From Streptomyces albogriseolus (lineage in GTDB: Bacteria > Actinomycetota > Actinomycetes > Streptomycetales > Streptomycetaceae), in NCBI GenBank assembly GCA_014650475.1, contig BMVA01000012.1:174924-238923 (forward strand): a DNA stretch of 64,000 nt, read 5' to 3'. This document shows, one piece after another, positions 1 to 16,960 of the stretch (its first letter is position 1; every line of letters begins with the position of its first letter). Both the position numbers and the translations under genes were made by a program. The notes under the pieces are model-generated. The model saw only the letters and a program-made list of their open reading frames with translations. It made no database searches and was not told the origin of the DNA.

Positions 1-2081
1 CCCGAGGACATGTAGGCGTCGAGGATGCCGACCAGGTGACCGGCGCGTTCCGCGGGGACGTGCCCGAGGCCCTCCGGGGTGATCGTGGTGGTCAGGGAGA
101 TGCCGTCCCGCGCCGCCTCGTACGGGAGCTTGGCCACCGAGAGGGCCGAGGCGGCGACCCCGTGCCGGTCACGGCCGTTCATCGGGTTGGCGCCGGGGGC
201 GAACGGGGCGCCCGCGCGCCGGCCGTCGGGGGTGTTGCCGGTGTGCTTGCCGTAGACCACGTTCGAGGTGATGGTCAGCACGGACTGCGTGTGCTCGGCG
301 TCGCGGTAGGTGGGGTGCCTGCGCACCTTCGCCATGAACGACTCCACCAGGTCGACGGCGAGCGCGTCGACGCGGTCGTCGTTGTTGCCGTAGGCCGGGA
401 ACTCGCCCTCGGTCTTGAAGTCCACGGCCAGTCCGGTGGCGTCGCGGAACACCTTCACCCGGGCGTGCTTGACGGCGGACAGGCTGTCCACGGCGACCGA
501 CAGGCCGGCGATGCCGCACGCCATGAAGCGGTGCACGGGGTGGTCGTGCAGGGCCATCTCGATGCGCTCGTAGGCGTACTTGTCGTGCATGTAGTGGATG
601 ACGTTCAGCGCGTCCACGTACGTCTGCGCGAGCCAGTCCAGGACGCGGTCGTACGCGGCGGACAGCTCGTCGTAGTCCAGGTACTCCCCCGTCAGCGGCG
701 GCGTCTCCGGGGCCACCTGCTCGCCGGTCATCTCGTCCCGGCCGCCGTTGACCGCGTACAGCAGCGCCTTGGCGAGGTTGACCCGCGCGCCGAAGAACTG
801 CATCTGCTTGCCGACCGCCATCGCCGAGACGCAGCAGGCGATCGCGGTGTCGTCACCGGTGCGCGGGCGCATCAGCTCGTCCGACTCGTACTGGACGGCG
901 CTGGTGTCGATGGAGACCTGGGCGCAGAACTCCTTGAAGCCGTCCGGGAGCCGCGGCGACCACAGCACGGTCAGGTTGGGCTCGGGGGCGGGTCCGAGGT
1001 TGTACAGGGTCTGCAGGAAGCGGAAGGAGGTGCGGGTGACCAGCGTGCGTCCGTCGGTGCCGATGCCGCCGATGGACTCCGTGACCCAGGTGGGGTCGCC
1101 GGAGAAGAGGGCGTCGTACTCCGGGGTGCGCAGGAACCGCACGATCCGCAGTTTGATCACGAAGTCGTCGATCAGCTCCTGGGCGCGGCTCTCGTCGAGG
1201 ATCCCTTCGTCCAGGTCCCTCTGGAGGTAGACGTCCAGGAAGGTGGAGGTGCGGCCCAGTGACATCGCGGCGCCGTTCTGCTCCTTCACCGCCGCCAGGA
1301 AGCCCAGGTAGAGCCACTGCACCGCCTCGTGCGCGGTGGTCGCGGGCCGGGTGACGTCGCAGCCGTACGAGGCCGCCATCTCGGCCAGTTCGCCCAGTGC
1401 GCGGATCTGTTCGGCCAGTTCCTCGCGGTCGCGGACGACGTCCGCGGTGGACGGCCGCGCGTCCAGCAGGGCGCGCTCGGCCCGCTTGGCCTCGATCAAC
1501 CGGCCGGTGCCGTAGAGCGCGACGCGCCGGTAGTCGCCGATGATCCGGCCCCGGCCGTAGGCGTCCGGCAGCCCGGTGATGATGCCTGCCTTGCGGGCGG
1601 CCCGCATCGCCGGGGTGTAGGCGTCGAAGACGCCGTCGTTGTGGGTCTTGCGGTAGGTCCCGAACACCTTCGACACGAAGGGGTCGGTCTCGTAGCCGTA
1701 CGCCCTCAGACCGTTCTCCACCATGCGCAGCCCGCCGCCCGGCATGATCGCCCGCTTGAGCGGTGCGTCGGTCTGCAGGCCGACGACCAGTTCGCGGTCC
1801 CGGTCGATGTAGCCCGGCGCGTGCGAGGTGATCGTGGAGGGGGTGGCGGTGTCCACGTCGAGGATGCCCCGGCGCCGCTCCTCGGGGAAGAGCGCGCTGA
1901 CCTTCTCCCAGACGGCGCGCGTGCGGTCCGTGGGGCCGGTCAGAAAGGCGGCGTCACCCTCGTACGGGGTGTAGTTGGCCTGGATGAAGTCGCGCACGTC
2001 GATGCGCTCGCGCCATCCGCTTCCGGCGAACTGCCGCCAGGCATCGGCGGTTCGGGGGCCGGCCGGCACCGTCGCGGTCAT
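1..2081 (-). CDS. pflB: Formate acetyltransferase (pyruvate formate-lyase), C-terminus cut by window edge
   Basis: Converts pyruvate and CoA to acetyl-CoA and formate without oxygen by glycyl-radical chemistry. About 693 codons are present, starting MTATVPAGPRT at 2081, where a GAGAGGA ribosome site precedes the ATG. The paired active-site cysteines are visible as IACCVSAMAVG near residues 415-416, matching the Cys-Cys of the E. coli enzyme. The frame is still open at base 1 (…GHLVGILDAYMSSG), so roughly the last 50-60 residues, which should carry the RVSGYA-type glycyl radical loop, lie outside the window. A PflA activating enzyme would be expected further left. It is divergent from ppdK across a 357 bp region holding DevR-like boxes. 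Pfl is an unexpected enzyme in a genus treated as strictly aerobic. Family assignment is secure; function depends on the unseen activase. Confidence 0.95.
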   Translation of the reverse strand, partial: MTATVPAGPRTADAWRQFAGSGWRERIDVRDFIQANYTPYEGDAAFLTGPTDRTRAVWEKVSALFPEERRRGILDVDTATPSTITSHAPGYIDRDRELVVGLQTDAPLKRAIMPGGGLRMVENGLRAYGYETDPFVSKVFGTYRKTHNDGVFDAYTPAMRAARKAGIITGLPDAYGRGRIIGDYRRVALYGTGRLIEAKRAERALLDARPSTADVVRDREELAEQIRALGELAEMAASYGCDVTRPATTAHEAVQWLYLGFLAAVKEQNGAAMSLGRTSTFLDVYLQRDLDEGILDESRAQELIDDFVIKLRIVRFLRTPEYDALFSGDPTWVTESIGGIGTDGRTLVTRTSFRFLQTLYNLGPAPEPNLTVLWSPRLPDGFKEFCAQVSIDTSAVQYESDELMRPRTGDDTAIACCVSAMAVGKQMQFFGARVNLAKALLYAVNGGRDEMTGEQVAPETPPLTGEYLDYDELSAAYDRVLDWLAQTYVDALNVIHYMHDKYAYERIEMALHDHPVHRFMACGIAGLSVAVDSLSAVKHARVKVFRDATGLAVDFKTEGEFPAYGNNDDRVDALAVDLVESFMAKVRRHPTYRDAEHTQSVLTITSNVVYGKHTGNTPDGRRAGAPFAPGANPMNGRDRHGVAASALSVAKLPYEAARDGISLTTTITPEGLGHVPAERAGHLVGILDAYMSS

Positions 2082-2191
2082 CAGAGGTCCTCTCGTCGAA
2101 CGGCCTTGTCACGGTCGATGCTCGTCGTGCGGGCCCGCGGCGAGGAGTGCCGGACAGGGCACAGGGCGGGTCCCTCCGCCCTCGTCCGGCC

Positions 2192-2205
2192 GGGACCTTC
2201 GGCCC
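2192..2205. promoter_or_regulatory. DevR/OsdR-like box, GGGAC-CTTC-GGCCC
   Basis: A 5-4-5 interrupted inverted repeat with the same arm length and spacing as the mycobacterial DevR/DosR box core GGGAC-N4-GTCCC. It differs from perfect symmetry at one position. It sits between pflB and ppdK and could serve both promoters. The assignment to an OsdR-type regulator is inference. Confidence 0.5.
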
Positions 2206-2336
2206 CCTGTGCCGAACGGCGCGCAGCGCGGCTCGGGGCCGTCGGGTGGTGGCGGACGACCGGAGAGCAGGGTGTGCGCCCGGCCATGACGCGGCAGGGC
2301 CCCCGAAGGTCCTTCCGGCACGGACGGCGTGAACCC

Positions 2337-2351
2337 GGGCCGACCGGTCCC
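2337..2351. promoter_or_regulatory. Second DevR/OsdR-like repeat, GGGCCGACCGGTCCC
   Basis: A near-palindromic 15-mer about 90 bp upstream of the ppdK start. The GGGCC and GTCCC arms are separated by five bases rather than four, so it is weaker than the 2192 box. It closely resembles the repeat before adhE. Confidence 0.35.
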
Positions 2352-2438
2352 CCGGGCAGGACGGCCGGCACCTCGCGCCGGGCACGCCCCCGCCCGACGC
2401 TGGGACCGTCACGCCCCCACGCTTAGGAGCGCAGCGTC

Positions 2439-5135
<2,697 letters not shown>

Positions 5136-5141
5136 GGCCCG

Positions 5142-5180
5142 GGGGCTCCTCGGCCCTGGGGTCAGGGGCCGAGGAGCCCC
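5142..5180 (+). terminator. Rho-independent-type hairpin after ppdK
   Basis: A perfect 15 bp stem, GGGGCTCCTCGGCCC paired with GGGCCGAGGAGCCCC, begins seven bases after the ppdK stop. There is no T tract, as is common for streptomycete terminators. Confidence 0.8.
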
Positions 5181-5267
5181 GGTGCCGGGGCCGACCGCCT
5201 CTGGGGCGCCGACGGGAAACGCAGCAGTCTTGAGGTGTTCGCAGAACGATCAGAGGGAGCGGAACAC

Positions 5268-5651
5268 ATGACTGCCAAGGACATCGGCGACCAGGGGACC
5301 ACCGCCGCCGTGCGGGTGCGTGCCGACGGCGGGCTGGACGAGGAGTCGCTCGCCTATCTCCGCGAGAAGGTCGCCGCCGCCCTGGACCGGCCGGGACTGC
5401 CGCCCGTGAGTGGTGAGGTGCGCGTCCAGCGGGCCGAGGCCCACCACGTGGACCTGCCCTGGTCCGCCGTCGCCGACATCCGGGTCGGACGCCGCCTCGT
5501 GACCGTCCACGCCCGCGAGGCGAGCGCACGCGAACTCGCCGACCGGCTCCACGACCGGCTGTGCGCCGGTACCGGACGCGCCGTCCACCGGGACGACGCC
5601 GGCCGCCGGGCGGCCGCGCCGCCCCCGTGGCGCGGCGGCCCGCGGAGGTAG
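5268..5651 (+). CDS. Short HPF/RaiA-like ribosome hibernation protein
   Basis: A 127 aa product starting MTAKDIGDQGTTAAV. The ATG at 5268 is preferred over the in-frame upstream start at 5235 because AGAGGGAGCGG sits just ahead of it. The core VRVRADGGLDEESLAYLREKV, then a strand-rich middle (EVRVQRAEAHHVDLP, ADIRVGRRLVTVHAR) and a second helix (SARELADRLHDRL), matches the beta-alpha-beta-beta-beta-alpha fold of HPF/RaiA proteins. These bind the small subunit and hold ribosomes inactive. The long-HPF dimerisation domain is absent, and the tail is Arg/Pro rich instead. A half-box resembling the adhE repeat lies at about 5187-5201. Family call is moderate because sequence conservation in short HPFs is low. 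Confidence 0.65.
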   Translation: MTAKDIGDQGTTAAVRVRADGGLDEESLAYLREKVAAALDRPGLPPVSGEVRVQRAEAHHVDLPWSAVADIRVGRRLVTVHAREASARELADRLHDRLCAGTGRAVHRDDAGRRAAAPPPWRGGPRR

Positions 5652-5737
5652 GCGCCGCGCGGCGTCCGCCCGGACCGGCGGGGGAGCCGGCCTCCGGCGC
5701 CGGCCCTCCCCGTCCCGCTTGTGAAGGAGAATCCGCC

Positions 5738-6385
5738 ATGACCGCTCACACCGTCGGTGAAGTGATGACCAGGGACGTCGTGCAGGCCCGCCGGACGACG
5801 CCGTTCAAGGAGGTGGTGCGCCTGCTCGACCTCCACCGGATCAGCGGACTGCCGGTGGTCGACGCCGACGACAAGGTCCTCGGCGTCCTGTCCGGCAGCG
5901 ATCTGGTACGCGCTCAGGCCTACCGGGACGGCACCGTTCCGCCTCCGGCCGTGACGGCGGGGGACGTGATGTCGAGTCCCGCGGTCACCGTGCACCCGGA
6001 GCAGTCCGTCCCGGACGCCGCCCGGCTGATGGAGCGCCGTGGCATCGAGCGGCTGCCCGTGGTGGACGAGGAGGACCGGCTCATCGGCATCGCCACCCGC
6101 CGGGATCTGCTCCGGGTCTTTCTGCGCGCGGACGACGACATCCGCCGCCAGGTGACCGCGGAGATCGTCGTCGGCGCGCTGGACCTGCCGTCCGACGCCG
6201 TCCGCGTCTCCGTGCGCGACGGTGTCGTCACCCTCGTCGGCCGCGTCGAGCGGCGCAGTCAGGTGCCGGAGCTCGTCCACGCCGTCTGGCGCCTCGAAGG
6301 CGTGGTCGGCGTGGTGAACCGGCTCGGCTTCCGCACCGACGACTGCGCGGCGTCCACCCGGCTCGTCCGGACCGGGAATCCGTGA
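5738..6385 (+). CDS. CBS-domain pair plus BON domain protein
   Basis: A 215 aa soluble protein whose ATG at 5738 follows GAAGGAGAA. Residues about 8-60 and 75-130 form two CBS motifs (VGEVMTRDVVQARRTTPF…GLPVVDADDKVLGVLSGSDLV and AGDVMSSPAVTVHPEQSV…RLPVVDEEDRLIGIATRRDLL). The last 70 residues are a BON domain (RVSVRDGVVTLVGRVERRSQV). CBS pairs bind adenylates and report energy charge; BON domains are thought to bind lipid or membrane. Similar CBS proteins occur in DevR/OsdR regulons. No enzymatic domain is present, so it is probably a sensor or adaptor. Partner unknown. Confidence 0.85.
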   Translation: MTAHTVGEVMTRDVVQARRTTPFKEVVRLLDLHRISGLPVVDADDKVLGVLSGSDLVRAQAYRDGTVPPPAVTAGDVMSSPAVTVHPEQSVPDAARLMERRGIERLPVVDEEDRLIGIATRRDLLRVFLRADDDIRRQVTAEIVVGALDLPSDAVRVSVRDGVVTLVGRVERRSQVPELVHAVWRLEGVVGVVNRLGFRTDDCAASTRLVRTGNP

Positions 6386-6421
6386 GCGGAGCGGCGAGCG
6401 GTCCCGTGGCTCGGCCGGCCG

Positions 6422-6435
6422 GGGCCGACGGTCCC
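6422..6435. promoter_or_regulatory. DevR/OsdR-like box upstream of adhE, GGGCC-GACG-GTCCC
   Basis: A 5-4-5 interrupted inverted repeat about 130 bp before the adhE start, matching the DevR box geometry. A further GGTCCTTCGGCGGCCCC segment at about 6465-6481 resembles the pflB/ppdK repeat but is less symmetric. Confidence 0.5.
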
Positions 6436-6566
6436 TGCGGGGCCGGGCCGGACGGACACGGGAGGGGTCCTTCGGCGGCCCCTGCGGAGGGCGGACCCGG
6501 AGGACAGTGAAGGCAGAGAGCGCCGCCGTACACCACGGCGGCCCCTGACGACGGAGGCGGACCACC

Positions 6567-9209
6567 ATGACCCGACAGGACGTGCGGACCAGAGACCGCG
6601 TCGAGGCCGACGCGCCCTCGGACACCGCGGTCGCCGTGGACCGTCTGGTCACGGCCGGCCTCAAGGCACTCGCCGATTACGAGGGTCTCAGCCAGGAGCA
6701 GGTCGACCACATCGTGAAGAAGGCGTCGGTCGCCGCCCTGGACCAGCACACCGCACTGGCCCTTCTGGCGGTCGAGGAGACCGGGCGGGGGGTGTTCGAG
6801 GACAAGGCGGCCAAGAACATGTTCGCCTGCGAGCACGTCACGCACAGCATGGGCCCCATGAAGACCGTCGGCGTCATCGCCCGCGACGACATCGAGGACA
6901 TGGTCGAGATCGCCGAACCGGTGGGCGTCGTGTGCGCGATCACCCCCGTCACCAACCCGACCTCCACCACGATCTTCAAGGCGCTGATGGCCCTGAAGAC
7001 CCGCAACCCGGTCGTCTTCGCCTTCCACCCCTCCGCCCAGCGGTGCAGTGCCGAAGCCGCCCGCATCGTGCGCGACGCGGCCGTCGCCGCGGGCGCGCCG
7101 GAGCACTGCGTGCAGTGGATCGAGCAGCCGTCGGTCGAGGCCACCGGCACGCTGATGCGCCACCCGGGCGTCTCGCTGATCCTCGCCACCGGCGGCAACG
7201 CCATGGTCAAGGCCGCCTACTCGGCCGGCAAGCCCGCCCTCGGCGTGGGCGCGGGCAACGTCCCGGCCTATGTCCACAAGAGCGCGAAGCTGCGCCGTGC
7301 CGTCAACGACCTGGTGCTGTCGAAGTCGTTCGACAACGGCATGATCTGCGCCTCCGAGCAGGCCGTCATCCTGGACGACGAGATCTACGACGCGGCGCTG
7401 GCGGAGTTCCGGACCCTGCACGCCCATCTGGCGACCGCCGAGGAGAAGGCGAAGCTGGAGTCCTTCCTGTTCCCCTCCTCCGGAGGCTCGGGCGCCGGCT
7501 GCGAACCCAAGGTCAACGCCGCCGCCGTCGGCCAGAGCCCCGCCTGGATCGCCGAGCGGGCCGGATTCTCCGTGCCGGAGGACACGTCGGTCATCCTCGT
7601 CGAGGCCGGACGGGTCGGCCCGGACGAGCCGCTGACCCGGGAGAAGCTCTGCCCCGTGCTGGCCGTGCTCCGGGCCGCGGACGAACAGCAGGGATTCGGC
7701 CTGGCCGCCGACATGGTCGCCTTCCACGGCCAGGGCCACAGCGCCGTCATCCACACCGAGGACCGCGCCCTGGCCGAGGCGTACGGCACCCGCATGAAGA
7801 CCGTGCGCGTCATCGTCAACGCCCCGTCCTCCCAAGGGGCGATCGGCGGCATCTACAACGGCCTGCTGCCGTCGCTGACCCTCGGCTGCGGCTCCTGGGG
7901 GAGCACATCGGTGTCCAACAACGTCTCCGCCGCCCAGCTTCTCAACGTCAAGCGGGTCGGTACGCGCCGCAACAACCTGCAGTGGTTCAAGGTCCCGCCG
8001 AAGATCTACTTCGAGCCGCAGGCCATCCGCTATCTGACCTCCATGCCGGACGTCCACCGCGTCACCGTCGTCACCGACGCGACCATGACCCGCCTCGGCT
8101 TCGTCGACCGGATCACGCGGGTGCTGCAGCGGCGGCGTGAGCCCGTGACCGTGCAGATCATCGACAGCGTCGAACCGGAACCCAGCATCGACTCCGTGCA
8201 GCGCGGCGCCGCCCTCATGCGGGAATTCCGCCCCGACACGATCATCGCGCTGGGCGGTGGCTCCCCCATGGACGCGGCCAAGGTGATGTGGCTGCTGTAC
8301 GAGCAGCCCGACGTCGACTTCGCCGACATGCGGCAGAAGTTCTCCGACATCCGCAAGCGCGCCTTCCGCTTCCCGGCCCTGGGCGAGCTGGCCCGCCTGG
8401 TGTGCGTGCCCACCACCTCCGGTACCGGCGCCGAGGTCACCCCCTTCGCCGTGATCTCCGACCCCGCCACCGGCAAGAAGTACCCGCTGGCCGACTACGC
8501 GCTCACCCCCAGCGTGGCCATCGTGGACCCGCTCCTCACCACCGCCCTGCCCCCGGCGCTGGCCGCCGACAGCGGCTTCGACGCCCTCACCCACGCCATC
8601 GAGGCGTACGTGTCCGTCTACGCCAACGACTTCACCGACGGTCTCGCCCTGCACGCGATCCGCCTGGTCTTCGGCCATCTCGAGGCGGCCGTGAACGACC
8701 GTGGGGACGCGGCGGAGGCCCGGGAAAAGATGCACAACGCCGGCACCATCGCCGGCATGGCCTTCGGCAACGCCTTCCTCGGCATCGTCCACGCCATGTC
8801 CCACACCCTCGGCGCCACCTTCCACATCGCGCACGGCCGCACCAACGCGGTCCTGCTTCCCCACGTCATCCGCTACAACGGCACCGTGCCCACGAAGCTC
8901 ACGGGCTGGCCCAAGTACGAGAACTACCGCGCCCCCGAACGCTTCCAGGACATCGCCCGCGCCCTGGGACTGCCCGCCGCCACCCCGGCCGAGGGCGTGG
9001 AGTCCCTCGCCGCCGCCGTCGAACGCCTGCGCGACGCCGTCGGCATCGAGCCGACGTTCGCGGCTGTGGGAATCGACGAGCGGACCTTCCTGGACGCCCT
9101 GCCGCAGCAAGCCCTCAACGCCTACGAGGACCAGTGCGCACCGGCCAACCCGCGCATGCCGATGCTGGACGACATGCAGGACATCATGCGCGCCGCCTAC
9201 CGCGGCTGA
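6567..9209 (+). CDS. adhE: Bifunctional acetaldehyde-CoA/alcohol dehydrogenase
   Basis: Reduces acetyl-CoA to acetaldehyde and then ethanol, regenerating two NAD+. At 880 aa it has full AdhE length. The N-terminal half is a CoA-acylating aldehyde dehydrogenase with the catalytic cysteine in FDNGMICASEQ (about residue 261). The C-terminal half is an iron-type alcohol dehydrogenase with the nucleotide motif GGGSPMDAAKVMW and the metal-ligand segment HAMSHTLGATFHIAHGR (about residues 742-758). The ATG follows GACGGAGGCGG. Together with pflB it makes a complete pyruvate-to-ethanol-plus-formate route, which is why I read this block as fermentative. Confidence 0.96.
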   Translation: MTRQDVRTRDRVEADAPSDTAVAVDRLVTAGLKALADYEGLSQEQVDHIVKKASVAALDQHTALALLAVEETGRGVFEDKAAKNMFACEHVTHSMGPMKTVGVIARDDIEDMVEIAEPVGVVCAITPVTNPTSTTIFKALMALKTRNPVVFAFHPSAQRCSAEAARIVRDAAVAAGAPEHCVQWIEQPSVEATGTLMRHPGVSLILATGGNAMVKAAYSAGKPALGVGAGNVPAYVHKSAKLRRAVNDLVLSKSFDNGMICASEQAVILDDEIYDAALAEFRTLHAHLATAEEKAKLESFLFPSSGGSGAGCEPKVNAAAVGQSPAWIAERAGFSVPEDTSVILVEAGRVGPDEPLTREKLCPVLAVLRAADEQQGFGLAADMVAFHGQGHSAVIHTEDRALAEAYGTRMKTVRVIVNAPSSQGAIGGIYNGLLPSLTLGCGSWGSTSVSNNVSAAQLLNVKRVGTRRNNLQWFKVPPKIYFEPQAIRYLTSMPDVHRVTVVTDATMTRLGFVDRITRVLQRRREPVTVQIIDSVEPEPSIDSVQRGAALMREFRPDTIIALGGGSPMDAAKVMWLLYEQPDVDFADMRQKFSDIRKRAFRFPALGELARLVCVPTTSGTGAEVTPFAVISDPATGKKYPLADYALTPSVAIVDPLLTTALPPALAADSGFDALTHAIEAYVSVYANDFTDGLALHAIRLVFGHLEAAVNDRGDAAEAREKMHNAGTIAGMAFGNAFLGIVHAMSHTLGATFHIAHGRTNAVLLPHVIRYNGTVPTKLTGWPKYENYRAPERFQDIARALGLPAATPAEGVESLAAAVERLRDAVGIEPTFAAVGIDERTFLDALPQQALNAYEDQCAPANPRMPMLDDMQDIMRAAYRG

Positions 9210-9241
9210 ACACGGTGCTCGTCGCCGGGGAACCCCGTGCG

Positions 9242-9274
9242 GGTGCCCCGGCGTCGCCCGTCCGGAGGGGCACC
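9242..9274 (+). terminator. Probable adhE terminator hairpin
   Basis: GGTGCCCC and GGGGCACC form a perfect 8 bp stem, extended by inner GG/CC pairs across a small bulge, 33 bp after the adhE stop. No T tract. Confidence 0.45.
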
Positions 9275-9303
9275 GTCTCCCGGCCGGTCGGCGGGCCGGG
9301 TCA

Positions 9304-9317
9304 GGGCCGAGTGGCCC
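9304..9317. promoter_or_regulatory. DevR/OsdR-like box upstream of usp, GGGCC-GAGT-GGCCC
   Basis: A perfect 5-4-5 inverted repeat about 100 bp before the universal stress gene, followed closely by a second weaker copy (GGCCCTGTCGGTCCC at 9325-9339). Two adjacent boxes are common in DevR-controlled promoters of mycobacteria. Confidence 0.5.
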
Positions 9318-9414
9318 GGGTCCCGGCCCTGTCGGTCCCTGGCCGGGGTGATCGTCCTGCTGGAGAGTGGAACCGTAAGGCCGCGTCCGCGGCCTGCCTA
9401 TGAGGGAGAGCACA

Positions 9415-10296
9415 GTGAGTGATCCGGTGATCGTCGGAGTGGACGGTTCGGCGTCGAGCCTCACCGCGGTCGATGTCGCGGCCCGCGAGGCCCGCCTGCG
9501 CGGCACCTCGCTGCGCATCGTCCACGCCATCGGCCGCCCGTCCGCCCACCTGCCGTCCGGCGCGGCGCCGTGGAGTCCGGCCGACCACGGCCTGGAGCCG
9601 CTGGTGCACGGACAACTGGCCCAGGCGGAGGAGCGGGCGCACGCGGTCGCGCCGGGAGTCGAGATCACTCGCTCGGTGGTGACCGGTGACGCGATCGAGG
9701 TCCTGGAGATCGAGTCACGGTCGGCGGCGCTGACCGTGGTCGGCAGTCGCGGCCTGACGGGCTTCTCCGGGCTGCTGCTCGGCTCGACGGCGGTGCATCT
9801 GGCCGCGCACGGCCACGGCCCGCTGATGGTGGTACGCGGCCGTCCGGACCCGGACGGGCCGGTGCTGCTCGCCGTGGACGGTTCCCCGGCCGGGGAGCGG
9901 GCGGTGGAGTTCGCGTTCGCCGAGGCCGCGCTGCGCGGTGCCCCGCTCGTGGCACTGCATGTGTGGAACACCTGGAGCGAAGGCGCCTACGATGGGTCCC
10001 TCGATCCGCTGGCCTCGATGGTGGCGAACGCCGACCAGCTGCAAGAGGCCGAACAGCGGGTCCTCGACCGGACCGTGACCCCCTGGCAGGAGGCCTATCC
10101 GCAGGTCACCGTCGAGCGCCGCCTGGTGCGGTCCCGGATCCGCAACGCGCTGATCGACGCCAGCAAGGAGGCTGGGCTGGTGGTGGCCGGCGCCCGGGGC
10201 AGCGGCGGCTTCACCGGCCTGCTCCTGGGATCGGTCAGCCAGGCGCTGCTGCACCACGCCCACTGCCCCGTCACCGTCGTCCGCGGCAAGGAGTGA
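9415..10296 (+). CDS. Tandem universal stress protein (two UspA domains)
   Basis: A 293 aa protein with two UspA domains (about residues 3-143 and 150-293). Each ends with an ATP-binding loop: GSRGLTGFSGLLLGS and GARGSGGFTGLLLGS, fitting G-x2-G-x9-G[ST]. The GTG at 9415 is chosen over the ATG at 9400 because GAGGGAGAG, overlapping that ATG, is the natural ribosome site. Tandem Usp proteins bind ATP and are hallmark members of hypoxia/dormancy regulons (DevR in Mycobacterium, OsdR in Streptomyces). The following ATPase begins two bases after the stop, so the two are almost surely cotranscribed. Confidence 0.93.
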   Translation: MSDPVIVGVDGSASSLTAVDVAAREARLRGTSLRIVHAIGRPSAHLPSGAAPWSPADHGLEPLVHGQLAQAEERAHAVAPGVEITRSVVTGDAIEVLEIESRSAALTVVGSRGLTGFSGLLLGSTAVHLAAHGHGPLMVVRGRPDPDGPVLLAVDGSPAGERAVEFAFAEAALRGAPLVALHVWNTWSEGAYDGSLDPLASMVANADQLQEAEQRVLDRTVTPWQEAYPQVTVERRLVRSRIRNALIDASKEAGLVVAGARGSGGFTGLLLGSVSQALLHHAHCPVTVVRGKE

Positions 10297-10298
10297 CC

Positions 10299-13022
10299 GT
10301 GCCCGAGCGGACCGCGGTCCCCGTCCCGCCCTCGCTTCACTGCGAGGACGCCTACGCGCGGGAGGCCACCGACGTGGCCGACCTGCTGGGCGTCGCTCCG
10401 GCCACGGGCCTGACCACGGCCGAGGCCGAGCGGCGGGCCGCCGACCACGGAGCCAACGAACTGGCCGAACCGGCCCGCAGGCCGCAGTGGCTGCGCCTGC
10501 TGGACCAGTTCCGCAGCTGGCTGATCGGCATCCTGCTCGCCGCGGCGGTCGTCGCCGGCGTCATCGGCGAGATCAAGGACGCGGTCGTCATCACCGTCGT
10601 GCTGTTCGTCAACGCCGTCATCGGCTATGCGCAGGAACGCCGCGCCGAGCGCAGCCTGGAAGCGCTGCGCCGCATGCTCGTCGCCGTCGCCCGGGTGCGC
10701 CGCGACGGCCGGGTGCTGAACATTCCGGCCGGCGCCCTCGTACCGGGCGACATCGTCCTGCTGGAAGCCGGCGACCGCGTACCGGCCGACGGGCGGCTGA
10801 CGGTCGCGGTGTCCGTCGAGGCCGCCGAGGCCGCGCTGACCGGCGAGTCGCACCCGGTAGCGAAATCGACCGCGCCCGCCGTCGGGGAAGGCGACGGCGA
10901 GGCGCCCGTCGCCGAGCGCACCGCCATGCTCTTCATGAACACGGTGCTGACCCGGGGCCGTGCCGAGATGATCGTCACCGCCACCGGCATGCACACCGCG
11001 GTCGGCGCGATCGCCGAGGAACTGCGCACGGGGGGCGACGCGCCCAGTCCGCTGCAGATCCAGATGGACAGTCTCGGCAGGAGACTCGCGCTCGTCAGCG
11101 GGGCCGCCGTGAGCGCCTACGTGCTCGTGTCGCTCGTCCGCGGCGAACCGCTCGCCGACCTCGCGCTGCGGGCCGTCGCGCTGGCGGTCGCGGCCATCCC
11201 CGAAGGGCTGCCCGCGGTCCTCGCGCTCACCCTCGCCCTGGGCGTCTACCGCATGGCCCGCCGCGGCGCCATCGTCAAGCGTCTGGCGTCCGTGGAGGCG
11301 CTCGGCTCGGCGACCGTGGTGTGCAGCGACAAGACCGGCACGCTGACGATGAACGAGATGACCACCCGGGCCCTGTGGGTCGCCGGACGCCGGTACGACG
11401 TGACGGGTGAGGGCTACGACACCGCCGGGGCCGTCCGCGCGGCCGAAGGGCAGCCCGTCCCCGACCTGCGCGACGCGGTCCTGCCCTTCGCCCTGTGCAA
11501 CGACGCCCGGCCCGGCGCCGAGGGCATGACCGGCGATCCCACCGAGGCCGCCCTGCTCGTCCTCGCCGCGAAGGCGGGCCTCGACACCGGCCTGCACACC
11601 CGGACCCCGCGCGTCGGGGAGATCCCCTTCGACCCCGCCGCGAAGTACATGGCCACCTTCCACCCGGGCCCGCACGGATCCGTCCACGTGCACGCCAAGG
11701 GCGCGGTCGACGTCCTGCTGGACCGGTGCACCCACCTGATGACCGACCAGGGTCCCGCCCCCCTCACCGCGGAGCGCCGCCGCGAGGTCTTCGACGTCGC
11801 ACGGCAGATGGGCGAAGAGGGCCTGCGCGTCCTCGGTGCCGCCACCGCCGTGAGCGACCGGCCCGACACCGGTCAGGTGACCGGACTGACGCTCACCGCT
11901 GTCGCGGGCATCACCGACCCACCGCGTCCCCAGGCGCGCGACGCCGTCGCCCTCGCCCAGGCCGCCGGCGTCACCGTGAAGATGATCACGGGGGACCATG
12001 CGGACACCGCCACCGCCATCGCCCGCGAGCTGGGCATCACCGGCGACGTCGTCACCGGGGCCGAGCTGACCCGGATGGGCGAGCAGGACCTCGCGGACCG
12101 CGTCGAGGGCATCGGGGTCTTCGCCCGCGTCGCGCCCGAGCACAAGGTCTCCATCGTCCGCGCCCTCTCCCGGCGCGGGCACATCGTGGCCATGACCGGC
12201 GACGGCGTCAACGACGCGGCCGCCCTGCGCGCCGCGCACATCGGCGTCGCCATGGGCGTCACCGGCACCGACGTCGCCAAGGAAGCCGCCGACATGGTGC
12301 TCACGGACGACGACTTCTCCACCATCGTGCGCGCGGTCCGAGAGGGCCGTTCCATCTACGACAACATCGTCACCTTCGTGCGCTTCCAGCTGTCCACCAA
12401 CATCGGCGCCATCCTCACCCTGCTCGCCACCGTGCTGGCCGGACTGCCCGCCCCCATGTCGGCGATCCAGCTGCTGTGGGTCAACATCATCATGGACGGA
12501 CCGCCCGCCATGGCGCTCGGCATCGACCCGCCACGGGACGACGTGATGCGGCGTCCGCCCCGTCCGCCCGGCGAGCGCATCCTCAACGGCCGACGCCTGA
12601 TCGCCATCACCCGCTCCGGCGTGGTCATGGCCGCCGGCACCGTGGCCGTGTTCGCCTCCGCCCGTGCCCTCACCGACGACACCGCGACAGCGACGACGAT
12701 GGCGTTCACCACGTTCGTACTGTTCCAGCTCTTCAACGCCCTGGCCGTCCGCAGCGAGGGCGGCCCGGTGCTGGGGCGCCATCAGCTGCACAACCGCACC
12801 CTCTGGATCTGCCTGGCGGCAGTGCTCGTCCTTCAGGTCATCGCCGTTCAGGCCCCGTTCGCCCAGGACGTCTTCGACACCGTCGCCCTCAGCGCCGCCC
12901 AGTGGGCCGTCTGCCTGCTCACCGCCTCCAGCGTGCTCCTGACGGAACACGCCTGGCGCGCCGTGCACGCACGACGCGGCACCACAGGTGACGCGGGCGG
13001 GTCGAGCCGCCTCGGGAACTGA
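10299..13022 (+). CDS. P2-type cation-transporting ATPase (Ca2+/Mn2+ type)
   Basis: A 907 aa P-type ATPase. The GTG at 10299 lies five bases after AAGGAG. Visible landmarks in order are the N-terminal cation ATPase domain (DVADLLGVAPATGLT), actuator motif LTGES, PEGLP in TM4 (AAIPEGLPAVLALTLALG), phosphorylation site DKTGTLTMNEMT (Asp about 344), hinge TGDGVND and the TM6 segment LLWVNIIMDGPPAMALG. The PEGL and N-x4-DG motifs fit the P2 calcium/manganese/magnesium branch and exclude heavy-metal P1B pumps. Coupling to usp suggests ion or membrane-potential homeostasis during energy limitation. The exact ion cannot be read from sequence. Confidence 0.92.
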   Translation: MPERTAVPVPPSLHCEDAYAREATDVADLLGVAPATGLTTAEAERRAADHGANELAEPARRPQWLRLLDQFRSWLIGILLAAAVVAGVIGEIKDAVVITVVLFVNAVIGYAQERRAERSLEALRRMLVAVARVRRDGRVLNIPAGALVPGDIVLLEAGDRVPADGRLTVAVSVEAAEAALTGESHPVAKSTAPAVGEGDGEAPVAERTAMLFMNTVLTRGRAEMIVTATGMHTAVGAIAEELRTGGDAPSPLQIQMDSLGRRLALVSGAAVSAYVLVSLVRGEPLADLALRAVALAVAAIPEGLPAVLALTLALGVYRMARRGAIVKRLASVEALGSATVVCSDKTGTLTMNEMTTRALWVAGRRYDVTGEGYDTAGAVRAAEGQPVPDLRDAVLPFALCNDARPGAEGMTGDPTEAALLVLAAKAGLDTGLHTRTPRVGEIPFDPAAKYMATFHPGPHGSVHVHAKGAVDVLLDRCTHLMTDQGPAPLTAERRREVFDVARQMGEEGLRVLGAATAVSDRPDTGQVTGLTLTAVAGITDPPRPQARDAVALAQAAGVTVKMITGDHADTATAIARELGITGDVVTGAELTRMGEQDLADRVEGIGVFARVAPEHKVSIVRALSRRGHIVAMTGDGVNDAAALRAAHIGVAMGVTGTDVAKEAADMVLTDDDFSTIVRAVREGRSIYDNIVTFVRFQLSTNIGAILTLLATVLAGLPAPMSAIQLLWVNIIMDGPPAMALGIDPPRDDVMRRPPRPPGERILNGRRLIAITRSGVVMAAGTVAVFASARALTDDTATATTMAFTTFVLFQLFNALAVRSEGGPVLGRHQLHNRTLWICLAAVLVLQVIAVQAPFAQDVFDTVALSAAQWAVCLLTASSVLLTEHAWRAVHARRGTTGDAGGSSRLGN

Positions 13023-13189: not shown

Positions 13190-14626
13190 TCAGTGCACGT
13201 GCGGGCCACCGGTCGACCGCGGTGTGCCTGGCGGGACGAGCCCCAGGGACACGGCGGCGCCGAGAGCGGCCGCCACGGCGCACACCGTGAACGCGTCGCC
13301 GAAGCCTTCCACCGAGCCGCGCTCGAAGCCGGAGGCTGCCACGGTCGAGACGACGGCGACGCCGACCGAGCCACCCACCTCGTGGAAGGTGTTGACGACT
13401 CCGGAGGCGAGCCCTGCCTCCTGGTGCCCGACCATGCCCAGGGCGGTCGTGGTGGCGGTGACGAAGACCGCGCCGAGGCCGAGGGAGGCGATGACGAAAC
13501 CCGGCAGAAGCCCGCCGTACACACTGCCGGTCTCGGACAACCGGGTCAGCGGGAGGGTGCCGACGGCCGCGAGGGCCATGCCGGCGACGGCCGTCGGACG
13601 GCTGCCGATCCGCCCCACGAGCCGGGAGGCGAGGTGGGCGCCCGTACCGGTGGCCACGGCGACGGGCAGGAAGACCACGCCGGTCTTCAGCGCACTGAGG
13701 CCGCGGATGTGCTGGAGGTAGACGGACCCGAGGAAGAAGTACGCGATCAGCAGCCCCGTCGCGATCAGCATCAGGAACGCTCCCGCCAGCACCGGCCGCC
13801 GAGTGAACATCCGCAGGTCCATCAGAGGGGCGCGACTGGTTCGTTCGACCGCCGCGAAGGCCGCGTACGCGACCGCCGCACCGGCCAGTGGCAGCAGGGT
13901 CGAGGCGTCCGCCCAGCCGGCCTCCCCCGCCTCGACCAGGCCGTAGATCAGAGCGGCCGTGCCCGTGGTGACGAGCAGCGCACCAGGGACGTCGAGCCGC
14001 GCGGGCCGCGGGGCCCGGGCCGGCACGAAGGCGGGCAGGGCGGCCAGCAGGAGCAGTCCGACCGGCACGTTGACGAAGAACACCCACGGCCAGCCGGGGC
14101 CGTCGGTCAGAGCCCCGCCGAGGAGCACGCCGGCCGCCGAACCGGTCCCGCCGATCGCCGCCCAGACACCGAGGGCCTTGGTGCGTTCCGCGCCGTGGAA
14201 GGTCGTGGTGACGATGGACAGCGCGGCCGGGGACAGCAAGGCCGCGCCGACGCCCTGGCCGATCCTGCCGCCGAGCAGTGCCGGGGCGTTCTGGGCCAGA
14301 CCGGTGACCAGTGAGGCGGCGGTGAAGAGGGCGAGTCCGGCGAGCAGGGTCCGGCGGGCGCCGAGAGCGTCGGCGAGTCGGCCGCCGAGCAGCATCAGCC
14401 CGCCGAAGCAGAGGGTGTAGGCGGTGACCGCCCAGGTCAGCGTCTCCCGGCCGAGGCCGAGGTCGGCCGCCATGTCGGGCAGGGCGACGTTCACGACGGT
14501 GACGTCGAGGATCAGCATGAACTGGGCGAGGCAGACCAGTGCGAGGGCTGCCCAGCGGCGTGGGTCGGCGGGCGGGTGGTGGCCGTGTTCGGCCGTGTGC
14601 GCGGCACCGGCTGCGGAGTGGGTCAT
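13190..14626 (-). CDS. MFS drug exporter, DHA2-like (second gene of pair)
   Basis: A 478 aa major facilitator protein starting MTHSAAGAAHTAEHGHH. The His-rich soluble leader precedes a first helix typical of DHA2 exporters (LAQFMLILDVTVVNVALPDMA). The motif-A-like loop GGRLADALGARRTLLAG is present, and about 14 hydrophobic segments are expected. These proteins expel cationic drugs or secondary metabolites using the proton gradient. Its ATG overlaps the stop of the upstream exporter (ATGA), so both are translated from one message controlled by the divergent TetR. Substrate unknown. Confidence 0.9.
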   Translation of the reverse strand: MTHSAAGAAHTAEHGHHPPADPRRWAALALVCLAQFMLILDVTVVNVALPDMAADLGLGRETLTWAVTAYTLCFGGLMLLGGRLADALGARRTLLAGLALFTAASLVTGLAQNAPALLGGRIGQGVGAALLSPAALSIVTTTFHGAERTKALGVWAAIGGTGSAAGVLLGGALTDGPGWPWVFFVNVPVGLLLLAALPAFVPARAPRPARLDVPGALLVTTGTAALIYGLVEAGEAGWADASTLLPLAGAAVAYAAFAAVERTSRAPLMDLRMFTRRPVLAGAFLMLIATGLLIAYFFLGSVYLQHIRGLSALKTGVVFLPVAVATGTGAHLASRLVGRIGSRPTAVAGMALAAVGTLPLTRLSETGSVYGGLLPGFVIASLGLGAVFVTATTTALGMVGHQEAGLASGVVNTFHEVGGSVGVAVVSTVAASGFERGSVEGFGDAFTVCAVAAALGAAVSLGLVPPGTPRSTGGPHVH

Positions 14627-16203
14627 GGCGAGTCCTTCTGGTGCGTTGTTCCGGTCGTGTCCGCGCCTCGGGACGGCGCGAGGAGAAGGGCGAGGAGCAC
14701 GCCGGCCGCGGTGACGCCTGCTCCGGCGGCCATCGCCGGCCCCATGCCGTCGACGAAGGCGCGGCGGGCGGCTTCGGCGAACACGGTCCCGGCGTCGCCG
14801 GGCAGGTGCTCGGCGAGGGCGAGCGCGGTGCCCAGGGAGTCCATGGCGGATTCGAGGAGCCTCTCGGGAACAGGGGCAGGGACGGCTCCGGTTTCGAGTC
14901 CGCTGCGGTAGCGGTCGGAGAGCAGGCTGCCCATGACCGCGACTCCGGTCGCCGCTCCGAGCTGGATGGCGGCGCTGTTGGTGGCCGAGCCGACGCCGAG
15001 GTCGGTTTCCGGCAGCGAGCCGACGATGGCGTCGCTGGTGGCCGTGATGACGAGCCCGGCGCCCGCTCCCAGCAGCAGCGTCGCCACAAGCGCCCGGCCG
15101 TAGCCGTCCGTCGCCTCGGTGGTGGCGAGCACCGCGGCGGAGGCAGAGAGCAGGGCGAGCCCTGCGGCCGACACCGCGCGCATGCCGAGGCGCGGTGCGA
15201 GCACGCCTGCCAGCGGGCCGGCGACCAGCAGGGCGAGCGCGGCGGGGCCGAGCCGCACTCCGGTCTGTCCGGCGCTGTACCCGAGCACGAACTGGAAGTG
15301 CTGTACGGCCACGAACAGCGTGCCGATCAGTGCGAACGCTCCCAGCATGACCAGCAGGTCACCGGCCGCGAGCGCACGGTGCCGGAAGATCCGGGGCGGC
15401 AGCATGGGAGAGGCGGACCTGCGCTGCCAGACGACGAAGGCGGTCAGCAGGAGGGCGCCCGCCGCGAAGGCGGTCCGCACCGCGGGGCTCGTCCAGCCGC
15501 GGTCGGGCCCTTCGATGACTGCCCACAGCACACTCCCCACGGCCGCGACGGACAGCAGGGCCCCGGCCGGGTCCAGCCGCCCGCTCCCGGGGGCGCGGGA
15601 GTCGGGCACCAGCAGCGCGGCGGCGATCAGGCCCGCGACACCGAGGGGGAGATTGATCAGGAACACCGAGCCCCACCAGTAGTGGCTCAGCAGCCAGCCG
15701 CCGACCATCGGCCCGATCACCGTCCCGACGCCGACGGCCGCCGACCAGATGCCGATCGCCTTGGTGCGTTCGGCACCGCGCGGGAAGACCGTCCCGATGA
15801 CGGCGAGCGTGGCCGGCATGATCAACGCCTCCCCGACCCCCATGGCCCCACGCGCGAGCACGAGGGTGGTGACGGAGCCGGCATACGCGGCGAGCACGGA
15901 CGCCGCCGTGAACAGCGCCAGCCCCGACATGAAGATCCATTTGCGGCCGAGCCGGTCCGCCAGGCTGCCGCAGAACAGCACCAGGCTGCCCGACATCAAC
16001 GCATAGCTGTCGACGATCCACTGCAACTGGCTGGTGGAGGCGCCGAGTTCACCGACGAGGGTCGGCAGGGCCACGTTCAGCACGGTGGTGTCGAGCCCGA
16101 CGACCAGCATGCTCACACTCACGACGGCGAGGGTGAGCCATCGCCGGGCCGGCGGGTCGCCGGTCCGTGGCGGGGCGGTCACCGGGTGAGTCACGGAGGG
16201 CAT
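14623..16203 (-). CDS. MFS drug exporter, DHA2-like (first gene of pair)
   Basis: A 526 aa 14-helix major facilitator protein. The ATG at 16203 (MPSVTHPVTAPPRTG) is chosen because AAAGGGGA precedes it. The in-frame ATG seven codons upstream would place that site inside the gene. Helix 1 shows SVSMLVVGLDTTVLNVALPTL and the loop motif CGSLADRLGRKWIFMSG, both typical of EmrB/QacA-type exporters. Helix 5 contains the antiporter-like GVGTVIGPMVGG. It is divergent from a TetR gene across a repeat-rich operator, a classic self-regulated efflux arrangement. The two exporters are different proteins, not recent duplicates. Confidence 0.92.
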   Translation of the reverse strand: MPSVTHPVTAPPRTGDPPARRWLTLAVVSVSMLVVGLDTTVLNVALPTLVGELGASTSQLQWIVDSYALMSGSLVLFCGSLADRLGRKWIFMSGLALFTAASVLAAYAGSVTTLVLARGAMGVGEALIMPATLAVIGTVFPRGAERTKAIGIWSAAVGVGTVIGPMVGGWLLSHYWWGSVFLINLPLGVAGLIAAALLVPDSRAPGSGRLDPAGALLSVAAVGSVLWAVIEGPDRGWTSPAVRTAFAAGALLLTAFVVWQRRSASPMLPPRIFRHRALAAGDLLVMLGAFALIGTLFVAVQHFQFVLGYSAGQTGVRLGPAALALLVAGPLAGVLAPRLGMRAVSAAGLALLSASAAVLATTEATDGYGRALVATLLLGAGAGLVITATSDAIVGSLPETDLGVGSATNSAAIQLGAATGVAVMGSLLSDRYRSGLETGAVPAPVPERLLESAMDSLGTALALAEHLPGDAGTVFAEAARRAFVDGMGPAMAAGAGVTAAGVLLALLLAPSRGADTTGTTHQKDSP

Positions 16204-16247
16204 GGGGTCCCCTTTCGTACGCATGGCCTTGCTCGACGGGCTCTCAT

Positions 16248-16293
16248 CTGAACCATACCGTTCAGTTCACTTGAACTCAACAGTTCAGTTCAG
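16248..16293. promoter_or_regulatory. Dense TetR operator region with GTTCA/TGAAC repeats
   Basis: Three overlapping symmetric elements lie between the exporter and tetR starts: CTGAAC-CATACC-GTTCAG (16248-16265), AGTTCA-CT-TGAACT (16264-16277), and a direct repeat GTTCAGTTCA at 16260-16269 and 16283-16292. This is what a cooperative TetR dimer site would look like. Binding by the adjacent regulator is inference. Confidence 0.65.
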
Positions 16294-16312
16294 TGGGTGT
16301 TAGGGTCGAGGC

Positions 16313-16960
16313 ATGAGCGTGGACAGCGTCAAACGGCCCCCCAGCGGGCCCCGCGCGGAGCTCAAGCGGCAGGCCATCCTGCGGGCCGCCCGCGAGCTGT
16401 TCCTGCGGGAGGGCTTCGGCGTGGGCATGGACAGCATCGCCGCCGAGGCAGGCGTGTCGAAGGTGACCGTCTACAACCACTTCGGCAGCAAGGAAGCCCT
16501 GTTCACCTCGGTGATCACGAGCGCACTCGACGAACCGCTCGCCGGAGAGTCGTCCGCCGCGCTGGAGGGCCTGGCCGACGCCGGGGACCTGCGGGCCGCC
16601 CTCGTCGAGGCGGCCCGCACGTGGGTGCACGCCGTCCGCGCCAACCACGAGGTCACCGCCCTGCGCAACCTCGTCGCCGCCGAGCTCCACCGCTTCCCCG
16701 AGCTGGGCGAGGCCTGGAGACACCGCGGCACGGAAGGCCACCACCCCGCGGTCGCGGGCGCCCTGCGCACCCTCGCGGATCAGGGCCGGCTCGTGATCCC
16801 CGACCTCCAGGTGGCGGTCATCCAGTTCTACGGGCTTCTGGTCTTTCCCCACGTGGTCTTCAGTTCCTACGGCACACAGATCGACGAGGATCTGACCGAC
16901 CGTCTCATCACCGGCGGCGTCGACATGTTCCTGGCCCACTACGGCACACAGAGCACATAG
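16313..16960 (+). CDS. TetR/AcrR-family repressor of the exporter pair
   Basis: A 215 aa regulator. Residues about 15-65 form the TetR helix-turn-helix (AILRAARELFLREGFG…SKVTVYNHFGSKEALF). The rest is an all-helical ligand domain with the YbiH/RutR-like C-terminus (LVFPHVVFSSYGTQIDEDL). It is divergent from the two DHA2 exporters with a palindromic spacer, so it should repress both its own gene and the exporters until a substrate binds. The inducer cannot be named from sequence. Confidence 0.92.
   Translation: MSVDSVKRPPSGPRAELKRQAILRAARELFLREGFGVGMDSIAAEAGVSKVTVYNHFGSKEALFTSVITSALDEPLAGESSAALEGLADAGDLRAALVEAARTWVHAVRANHEVTALRNLVAAELHRFPELGEAWRHRGTEGHHPAVAGALRTLADQGRLVIPDLQVAVIQFYGLLVFPHVVFSSYGTQIDEDLTDRLITGGVDMFLAHYGTQST

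What the first reader, a model, noticed from the sequence alone, without database searches (positions are those of the whole stretch)
1..13022. A compact fermentation-plus-dormancy island in a streptomycete
Pyruvate formate-lyase, AdhE, PPDK, an HPF-like protein, CBS-BON, tandem Usp and a P2 ATPase sit together. Seen: complete enzyme signatures and tight spacing. Known: Usp, CBS and P-ATPase genes belong to DevR/OsdR regulons, while Pfl and AdhE are anaerobic enzymes. Inference: the organism can make ethanol and formate or dispose of reductant while storing ribosomes under hypoxia, which is unusual for a strict aerobe. PPDK could add PPi-driven ATP saving.
Basis: partly seen in the sequence, partly recalled or inferred. 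Interest (0 to 1): 0.8.

Follow-up and report, generated by a model that had tools for sequence, protein, structure and literature searches.

The report
Fermentation genes in Streptomyces dormancy island
A soil bacterium of a group usually treated as strictly air-dependent carries an apparently complete set of oxygen-free fermentation genes beside its low-oxygen dormancy switch, with likely switch-binding sites in front of them, so it can now be tested whether such bacteria ferment while dormant.

Summary
In detail: pflB (cut by the window edge), ppdK, an HPF-like gene, CBS-BON, adhE, a tandem Usp and a P2-type ATPase are present. The left flank adds pflA, overlapping pflB, then an OsdR/DevR-type regulator and a DevS/DosT-type GAF kinase. 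So this is the OsdKR dormancy locus with a fermentation module built in. Boxes matching the published S. coelicolor OsdR site lie before osdR, pflB/ppdK (divergent) and adhE. PFL is not rare: 134 of 392 Streptomyces genomes have it. Window-type PFL (class A) lay among dormancy genes in 75 of 75 fetched loci, with an OsdR box before pflB in 63 and a Rex operator in none; other PFLs (class B) lay so in 3 of 44 and had a Rex operator in 21. The 127-aa protein is an HPF N-domain closest to mycobacterial RafH. Gene order is shuffled; membership recurs. In print, S. lividans already shows a putative PFL, with a broken activase, co-expressed with OsdR. Low-oxygen induction, ethanol and formate were not testable here. 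A new variant of a known kind, and a handle on the Streptomyces 'anaerobic paradox'.

The parts
1..2081 (-). pflB, formate C-acetyltransferase (752 aa); its 3' end lies left of the window, at -177
   Evidence: TIGR01255 1136 bits over cut-off 994; alignment to E. coli PFL 1h16 keeps the Cys-Cys pair (IACCVS) and the glycyl-radical loop RVSGYAV. Immediately left of the window, in L003: pflA -920..-174(-), OsdR-type regulator -1712..-1014(-), OsdK-type kinase -3671..-1923(-), DoxX-like -4504..-3830(-)
2191..2206 (.). OsdR/DevR-type box in the pflB/ppdK divergent intergenic region, 125 bases before pflB
   Evidence: PWM score 12.2; 35 of 75 class A pflB genes have a box of score 10 or more in the 120-139 distance bin
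2336..2351 (.). OsdR/DevR-type box 103 bases before ppdK
   Evidence: PWM score 11.4; S. coelicolor ppdK has a predicted box at -102 (PMC5069765 Table 1)
2439..5135 (+). ppdK, pyruvate phosphate dikinase (898 aa)
   Evidence: TIGR01828 1236 bits over cut-off 843
5268..5651 (+). short HPF, N-domain only (127 aa), RafH-like
   Evidence: profile of 18 homologues hits RafH 8whx at E 3.3e-11; model pLDDT 80.8, Foldseek best hit RafH 8wi7 at E 6e-8
5738..6385 (+). CBS-CBS-BON protein (215 aa)
   Evidence: Pfam CBS 7e-33, BON 1e-11 on the longer frame 5561-6385
6421..6436 (.). OsdR/DevR-type box 146 bases before adhE
   Evidence: PWM score 14.2; island adhE genes have a box of score 10 or more in 17 of 26
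6567..9209 (+). adhE, bifunctional acetaldehyde-CoA/alcohol dehydrogenase (880 aa)
   Evidence: NF010378 1333 bits over cut-off 951; residues 24-880 aligned to solved AdhE 6ahc
9303..9318 (.). weak OsdR-type box 97 bases before usp
   Evidence: PWM score 8.8 only
9400..10296 (+). tandem universal stress protein (298 aa)
   Evidence: two Usp stretches, E 4.6e-53
10293..13022 (+). P2-type cation ATPase (909 aa), start codon chosen at the usp stop
   Evidence: Pfam E1-E2_ATPase and Cation_ATPase_C (longer frame 9963-13022); best NCBIfam model TIGR01522 at 751 bits, under its cut-off of 798

Best explanation
The region is the OsdKR (DevSR-type) oxygen/NO dormancy locus of a Streptomyces, in a version that carries an intact PFL-AdhE fermentation module. 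Proposed working: when oxygen falls, the GAF (heme) kinase phosphorylates the OsdR-type regulator, which binds boxes before its own gene, pflB-pflA, ppdK and adhE. PflA (radical SAM) puts the glycyl radical on PflB; PflB splits pyruvate to acetyl-CoA and formate; AdhE reduces acetyl-CoA to ethanol and returns two NAD+; PPDK can make pyruvate and ATP from PEP, AMP and PPi; the short RafH-like HPF parks ribosomes; Usp and CBS-BON proteins support the dormant state. Shown here: genes, catalytic motifs, adjacency, boxes, their conservation, absence of Rex operators. Inferred: heme binding, DNA binding, induction, flux, survival benefit.
For: pflA and the two-component system sit beside pflB. The kinase's first GAF domain matches DosT and DevS heme-domain structures at E 3.5e-50 and 6.7e-45 with the HPPM histidine kept. 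A PWM made only from published S. coelicolor sites finds boxes before osdR (-948), the pyridoxamine oxidase (-5725), pflB (2191), ppdK (2336) and adhE (6421); at score 11 or more 6 sites lie in 19.3 kb of island and 1 in the other 64.6 kb scanned. Class A pflB promoters: box of score 10 or more in 63 of 75, against 3 of 75 after one mononucleotide shuffle each. PFL genes with two or more dormancy marker types nearby: box 60 of 70, Rex 0 of 70; the others: box 10 of 49, Rex 21 of 49. 92 of 94 genomes with AdhE over cut-off have PFL over cut-off, and the other two keep broken PFL pieces. dN/dS of pflB 0.11-0.17 (7 relatives) and adhE 0.15-0.17 (6). In S. lividans a putative PFL (SCO0206) goes from 0 to 74 TPM in the OsdR-correlated group (CelA-producing against reference strain, PMC6302529 Table 2).
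Against: No expression, binding or product data for this strain. A genome-wide pattern search for the box gives no clear excess over its control (102 forward and 98 reverse against 87 and 100), so single sites mean little; at score 8 the island has 12 sites and the rest 14, and one strong site (4499) lies inside ppdK. 12 of 75 class A pflB promoters lack a box at score 10, and other island genes have it less often: PpdK 10 of 19, Usp 27 of 62, zinc ADH 7 of 27. The division from Rex is not clean: 10 of 20 Rex-bearing unlinked adhE genes also reach box score 10. The FocA-family gene and the formate dehydrogenase over cut-off show no box over score 9 within 1.5 kb. PFL has decayed in several dormancy islands and, by annotation, in S. 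lividans. The S. lividans induction was not shown to be hypoxic. Streptomycetes are reported not to grow anaerobically (PMC5069765). Counts are not corrected for shared ancestry.
Confidence: 0.75

Rival explanations
1. The island is the ordinary OsdR core regulon, and PFL-AdhE is an ancestral passenger under weak selection, on its way to loss as in S. lividans; it makes no useful fermentation flux.
For: Broken, partial or truncated PFLs sit in dormancy islands of G042, G290, G034, G106, G087, G264 and G013. S. lividans has a pflA fragment annotated as putative pseudogene. The HPF-like gene shows loose constraint (dN/dS 0.44-0.89 over 5 relatives).
Against: Catalytic motifs are intact in the window, pflB and adhE evolve at dN/dS 0.11-0.17, the pflB box sits in one 20-base distance bin in 35 of 75, and AdhE is kept almost only with PFL (92 of 94).
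Confidence: 0.17
2. PFL and AdhE here answer to the redox repressor Rex, as in other Gram-positives, and their place beside osdKR is incidental.
For: Class B pflB promoters carry a Rex operator in 21 of 44, and 20 of 20 unlinked adhE loci fetched hold one (19 perfect, 1 with one mismatch).
Against: No Rex operator within 3 mismatches in the window or in L003; 0 of 75 class A pflB promoters within 3 mismatches; 1 of 28 island adhE promoters within 3 mismatches.
Confidence: 0.03
3. PFL serves acetyl-CoA and formate (one-carbon) supply at low oxygen without ethanol as main product.
For: 42 of 134 PFL genomes lack an AdhE over cut-off, so PFL often works without AdhE.
Against: 92 of 94 AdhE genomes have PFL; in the window both genes carry boxes of one kind.
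Confidence: 0.05

Closest known systems
OsdKR core regulon of Streptomyces coelicolor (SCO0198-SCO0219)
   Same: GAF kinase and NarL-type regulator with Usp, alcohol dehydrogenase, pyridoxamine oxidase, nitroreductase and ppdK genes around them and OsdR boxes of one kind; the osdR box lies at -81 in both (PMC5069765 Table 1; window box at -948)
   Different: here an intact pflBA lies between osdR and ppdK, and adhE follows; S. lividans is annotated there with a putative PFL (orthologue SCO0206) and a pflA fragment (PMC6302529). No nar gene showed among the frames that I scanned from about 20 kb left of the window to 21 kb inside it (not every frame was scanned)
DevR/DosR dormancy regulon of Mycobacterium tuberculosis
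   Same: DevS/DosT-type sensor, RafH-type HPF; Usp genes in that regulon (PMC5069765); a P-type ATPase (CtpF) there is recalled, from no call
   Different: adds PFL, PflA and AdhE; that the mycobacterial regulon has no PFL is recalled, from no call
Rex-controlled PFL/AdhE sets (class B PFL in Streptomyces; S. aureus pflBA and adhE as cited in PMC5355995)
   Same: same enzymes and presumed products
   Different: different PFL clades; Rex operators in 21 of 44 class B pflB promoters; usually no dormancy genes around (3 of 44)
RafH (MSMEG_3935), ribosome hibernation factor
   Same: N-domain fold, best hit by profile and by fold; RafH is upregulated in hypoxia through DosR (PMC10799931 passages)
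   Different: 127 aa, without the second domain of RafH (264-residue chain)

Membership tests
PFL (formate C-acetyltransferase, TIGR01255) | equivalog score over curated cut-off | tested here: met
   1136 against 994 bits
PFL (formate C-acetyltransferase, TIGR01255) | adjacent catalytic cysteines and C-terminal glycyl-radical loop | tested here: met
   IACCVS and RVSGYAV align with 1h16; their roles are recalled
PFL (formate C-acetyltransferase, TIGR01255) | dedicated radical-SAM activase | tested here: met
   pflA overlaps pflB, TIGR02493 305 against 232 bits; CPLRCLYC motif read from the translation
PFL (formate C-acetyltransferase, TIGR01255) | pyruvate cleavage to formate | not testable with these tools
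   needs an assay
AdhE (NF010378) | both domains, over cut-off | tested here: met
   1333 against 951 bits, residues 18-880; residues 24-880 match 6ahc
DevS/DosT/OsdK sensor kinase | two GAF domains, HisKA_3, HATPase, conserved heme-pocket His | tested here: met
   domains; HHPPM/YHPPM alignment with DosT and DevS; that this His is the heme ligand is recalled. Heme binding itself not tested
OsdR/DevR regulator | receiver + LuxR-type HTH, gene beside the kinase, its own box upstream | tested here: met
   Response_reg and GerE; box at -948, score 14.7
OsdR regulon | OsdR boxes before the fermentation genes, conserved among relatives | tested here: met
   not met in 12 of 75 class A pflB promoters
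OsdR regulon | OsdR-dependent, hypoxia-induced transcription | not testable with these tools
   only indirect: S. lividans RNA-seq in a protein-producing strain
Rex regulon | Rex operator TTGTGAANNNNTTCACAA upstream | tested here: not met
   none within 3 mismatches in window or L003
HPF / RafH | S30AE-type beta-alpha-beta-beta-beta-alpha domain | tested here: met
   no Pfam match even at E 10
HPF / RafH | second (C-terminal) domain | tested here: not met
   protein ends at 127 aa; the 17 aligned homologues are likewise short (17 of 19 homologous frames found were aligned besides the window)
PMR1-type calcium P2A ATPase (TIGR01522) | score over curated cut-off | tested here: not met
   751 against 798 bits: P2-type, substrate open

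The most novel reading that the evidence does not exclude
Streptomycetes with an intact island are conditional fermenters: the hypoxia dormancy switch, not the redox repressor Rex, turns on a dedicated PFL-AdhE pathway that keeps non-growing mycelium energised and NAD+ balanced, while a second, Rex-wired PFL-AdhE set serves other members of the genus; model strains appear unable to ferment this way because their PFL locus has decayed.
Probability: 0.5. Interest if true: 0.7.

Novelty: new variant of a known kind. Interest (0 to 1): 0.55.

Why it matters
Streptomycetes carry genes for anaerobic metabolism yet are reported not to grow anaerobically, called the 'anaerobic paradox' in PMC5069765. 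If the dormancy regulator drives its own fermentation pathway, one answer is that these genes serve survival, not growth. Work in S. lividans and S. coelicolor could miss it because the PFL locus is annotated as damaged in S. lividans. The comparison also offers a natural experiment: one pathway apparently wired to two different regulators within one genus.

Tried and rejected
Rex control of the window genes: scanned and not found. Genome-wide search with an IUPAC box pattern: 102 forward and 98 reverse matches against control counts of 87 and 100, so uninformative; I fell back on a PWM, distance to start codons, and conservation. OsdR or Rex sites near formate genes of this genome: the FocA-family locus L255 has one box-like site of 8.4 and the formate dehydrogenase over cut-off (L256) none at 8 or more; two lower-scoring relatives of that dehydrogenase have sites of 9.5 and 10.2; no Rex site within 3 mismatches in L255-L259. 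Pfam and NCBIfam for the HPF-like protein: no match; solved by a profile and a model. 'PFL is rare in Streptomyces': rejected. A fixed gene order: rejected. Co-occurrence and class comparisons carry no correction for shared ancestry. The P-type ATPase lies mostly outside the 8.8 kb flank fetched, so its low count (2 of 75) is no evidence of rarity.

Literature: 10 searches, each showing a capped list; among the papers listed, PFL together with OsdR was seen only in PMC6302529 (one search listed 10 of 16). Seen: PMC5069765 outline, passages, sections 7, 12, 16; PMC6302529 passages and part 1 of 3 of section 16; PMC5355995 and PMC10799931 passages. All others: search listing only.

Full report
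What is there. The window is G000:C12:174924-238923 of an 8.07 Mb, 66-contig genome. The genus group is Streptomyces: one of its unnamed contigs (G222:C4, 987,818 bases) has the length of a named Streptomyces contig (L037), and the nine best-listed named PflB relatives (L036-L044) are Streptomyces. The listed genes are present, with strong family matches for all but the HPF-like one. Coordinates left of the window are negative here.

The missing left side. pflB (-177 to 2081, minus strand) is followed by pflA (-920 to -174), overlapping by four bases; then a NarL/DevR-type response regulator (-1712 to -1014), a GAF-GAF-HisKA_3-HATPase kinase (-3671 to -1923), a DoxX-like membrane protein (my label; no Pfam match), a zinc alcohol dehydrogenase, a pyridoxamine oxidase, another CBS-BON protein and a nitroreductase-like protein. 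The kinase's first GAF domain matches DosT (2vzw, E 3.5e-50) and DevS (2y8h, E 6.7e-45), with the histidine of the HPPM stretch kept. PflB keeps the Cys-Cys pair and glycyl-radical loop of E. coli PFL. There is one PFL and one PflA over cut-off in this genome.

Regulatory sites. A position weight matrix was built from 26 S. coelicolor OsdR sites in Table 1 of PMC5069765, none from this genome. It finds boxes before the pyridoxamine oxidase (-5725, score 17.5), osdR (-948, 14.7), pflB (2191, 12.2), ppdK (2336, 11.4) and adhE (6421, 14.2), with weaker ones before DoxX (-3754, 9.5) and usp (9303, 8.8). The osdR box starts 81 bases before the gene, the distance given for S. coelicolor osdR. At score 11 or more there are 6 sites in the 19.3 kb island and 1 in the other 64.6 kb scanned, one of the 6 (4499) inside ppdK; at score 8 or more the counts are 12 and 14. 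In S. coelicolor the SCO0207-SCO0208 (usp-ppdK) intergenic region is bound by OsdR in EMSA (PMC5069765 passage). A genome-wide pattern search showed no clear excess over its control, so a lone site is weak evidence.

Comparison across the genus. PFL is over cut-off in 134 of 392 Streptomyces genomes (145 with any match) and AdhE in 94 of the same number searched; 92 genomes have both, and the two AdhE-only genomes (G034, G106) keep broken PFL pieces. I fetched 119 PFL loci with 8.8 kb flanks (shorter at contig ends): 99 of the lower-scoring matches and 20 of the 36 high-scoring ones. Left out were 16 high-scoring matches and one terminal-repeat duplicate; 11 partial or edge cases were fetched later and are not in the counts. 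Identity to the window PflB is two-peaked: 75 loci at 84-94% (class A) and 44 at 70-76% (class B). In a quick tree of 84 rows, which held 18 of the 75 class A and 18 of the 44 class B sequences, class A was one clade at 100% SH-aLRT and class B fell in two other clades. At least one dormancy-type gene (tblastn match to the Usp, pyridoxamine oxidase, CBS-BON, OsdR, OsdK, PpdK or zinc ADH of the window region; Usp and others at family level, often 30-45% identity) lies near 75 of 75 class A and 3 of 44 class B loci; two or more marker types at set identities near 67 of 75 and 3 of 44. Order is strongly shuffled. In class A: OsdR-like 37, AdhE (80% or more) 29, PpdK 22, HPF-like 17 of 75. Eight class B loci have a 68-71% AdhE next to PFL.

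Two wirings. The best box within 300 bases of pflB scores 10 or more in 63 of 75 class A loci (35 of them in the 120-139 distance bin), in 3 of 75 after one mononucleotide shuffle each, and in 7 of 44 class B loci. Other class A island genes: OsdR 35 of 37, DoxX 27 of 28, AdhE 17 of 26, PpdK 10 of 19, Usp 27 of 62, zinc ADH 7 of 27. A Rex operator with at most one mismatch lies before 21 of 44 class B pflB genes; none of 75 class A genes has one within three mismatches. All 20 unlinked adhE loci fetched (of the unlinked ones listed, the 20 that I chose from the top scores) hold a Rex operator, 19 perfect, 105-230 bases outside the 5' edge of the AdhE match. Ten of these 20 also reach box score 10, and 3 class B pflB promoters have both signs: against a clean division. 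Of 28 island adhE promoters one has a Rex-like site within three mismatches. Two class B PFLs that lie in dormancy islands (L200, L214) carry an OsdR box at -105 and no Rex operator; the third (L156) has its box before the adhE that stands upstream of pflB. So place and wiring tend to go together even across clades. None of this is corrected for shared ancestry.

The HPF-like protein. No Pfam or NCBIfam match; alone it hits RafH only at E 0.044. Eighteen sequences give a profile that hits RafH at E 3.3e-11; the AlphaFold2 model (pLDDT 80.8) has the HPF fold, and its best Foldseek matches are RafH on the M. smegmatis ribosome (E 6e-8 and 6.4e-7). RafH is upregulated in hypoxia through DosR (PMC10799931, passages). 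The window protein is an N-domain-only form. Its dN/dS is high (0.44-0.89 over 5 relatives), against 0.11-0.17 for pflB (7), 0.15-0.17 for adhE (6), 0.18-0.20 for ppdK (3) and 0.28-0.35 for pflA (7).

What is already known. The OsdR regulon, its site, ppdK within it and its low-oxygen link are published (PMC5069765). PMC6302529 (section 16 part 1) lists in S. lividans, in the OsdR-correlated group of a CelA-producing strain, a 'putative pyruvate formate-lyase' (SCO0206; 0 to 74 TPM) and a pflA N-terminal fragment marked putative pseudogene, beside ppdK (1 to 65) and OsdR (16 to 391); that paper says hypoxia could not be confirmed there. So PFL in this locus is in print for a strain whose activase is annotated as broken. 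Decay recurs: broken, partial or truncated PFLs lie in the dormancy islands of G042, G290, G034, G106, G087, G264 and G013; G273, G224 and G375 have incomplete or split PFLs with none of these marker genes in the fetched stretch. Among the papers listed by my ten searches (see Tried and rejected) I saw none on an intact OsdR-linked PFL-AdhE set or on the Rex/OsdR division; most subscription journals are not in that library.

How it most likely works, and limits. Loss of oxygen (or NO) at the OsdK-type sensor leads to phosphorylated OsdR, which turns on pflBA, ppdK and adhE with the Usp and HPF genes; pyruvate then goes to formate and ethanol with NAD+ return while ribosomes are parked. Anatomy, motifs, boxes and their conservation are shown; heme binding, DNA binding, induction and products are inferred. 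Formate export or oxidation is open: the genome has one FocA/NirC-family gene and one FDH alpha over cut-off on another contig, without OsdR boxes over score 9 in their flanks. The PPDK direction (ATP saving or gluconeogenic) cannot be told from sequence.

Verdict. It is a variant of the known OsdR/DevR island with an intact fermentation module, in a genus where about a third of sampled genomes have PFL, and useful because it makes the anaerobic paradox testable in strains other than the models. On re-check only one odds value changed: the one-carbon rival from 0.1 to 0.05, so that the odds sum to one; no fact changed it.

Noticed in passing
phylum sample, e.g. G664:C1:289519-291964, G601, G776, G720, G403, G467, G622: In several small-genome Actinomycetota (about 1.5-2.5 Mb) PFL matches stop near model position 665 and the glycyl-radical end (about 664-744) follows a few hundred bases on, in the same frame in some genomes and as a separate short frame (88-121 aa) in others: an insertion or a split PFL.
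   Followed up: no
class B pflB promoters, e.g. L216, L218, L221, L223: Besides the Rex operator these promoters share a GGAC(C/T)TTCGG element, a GGGACCAA(C/T)GC-like element, a TGATCGATCA palindrome and GTGCAATGGA: an unassigned, strongly conserved promoter layout.
   Followed up: partly
L260, L261, L262, L264, L266, L269, L270: Broken, partial or truncated PFL genes inside dormancy islands of seven Streptomyces genomes: repeated decay of the same module.
   Followed up: partly
window 30013-30028: The only OsdR-type box over score 11 outside the island in the stretch scanned (13.9); the nearest gene checked is a TerD-domain gene at 30207-31484 on the minus strand, so the site is not upstream of it.
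   Followed up: no
L002:548-2280 and 4757-5785 (C12 about 155.5-160.8 kb): Beta-ketoacyl synthase, cupin and O-methyltransferase genes left of the island look like the edge of a polyketide cluster.
   Followed up: no
window 13190-16960: Two MFS transporter genes overlapping by four bases, divergent from a TetR-family regulator: a likely efflux unit that borders the island on the right.
   Followed up: no
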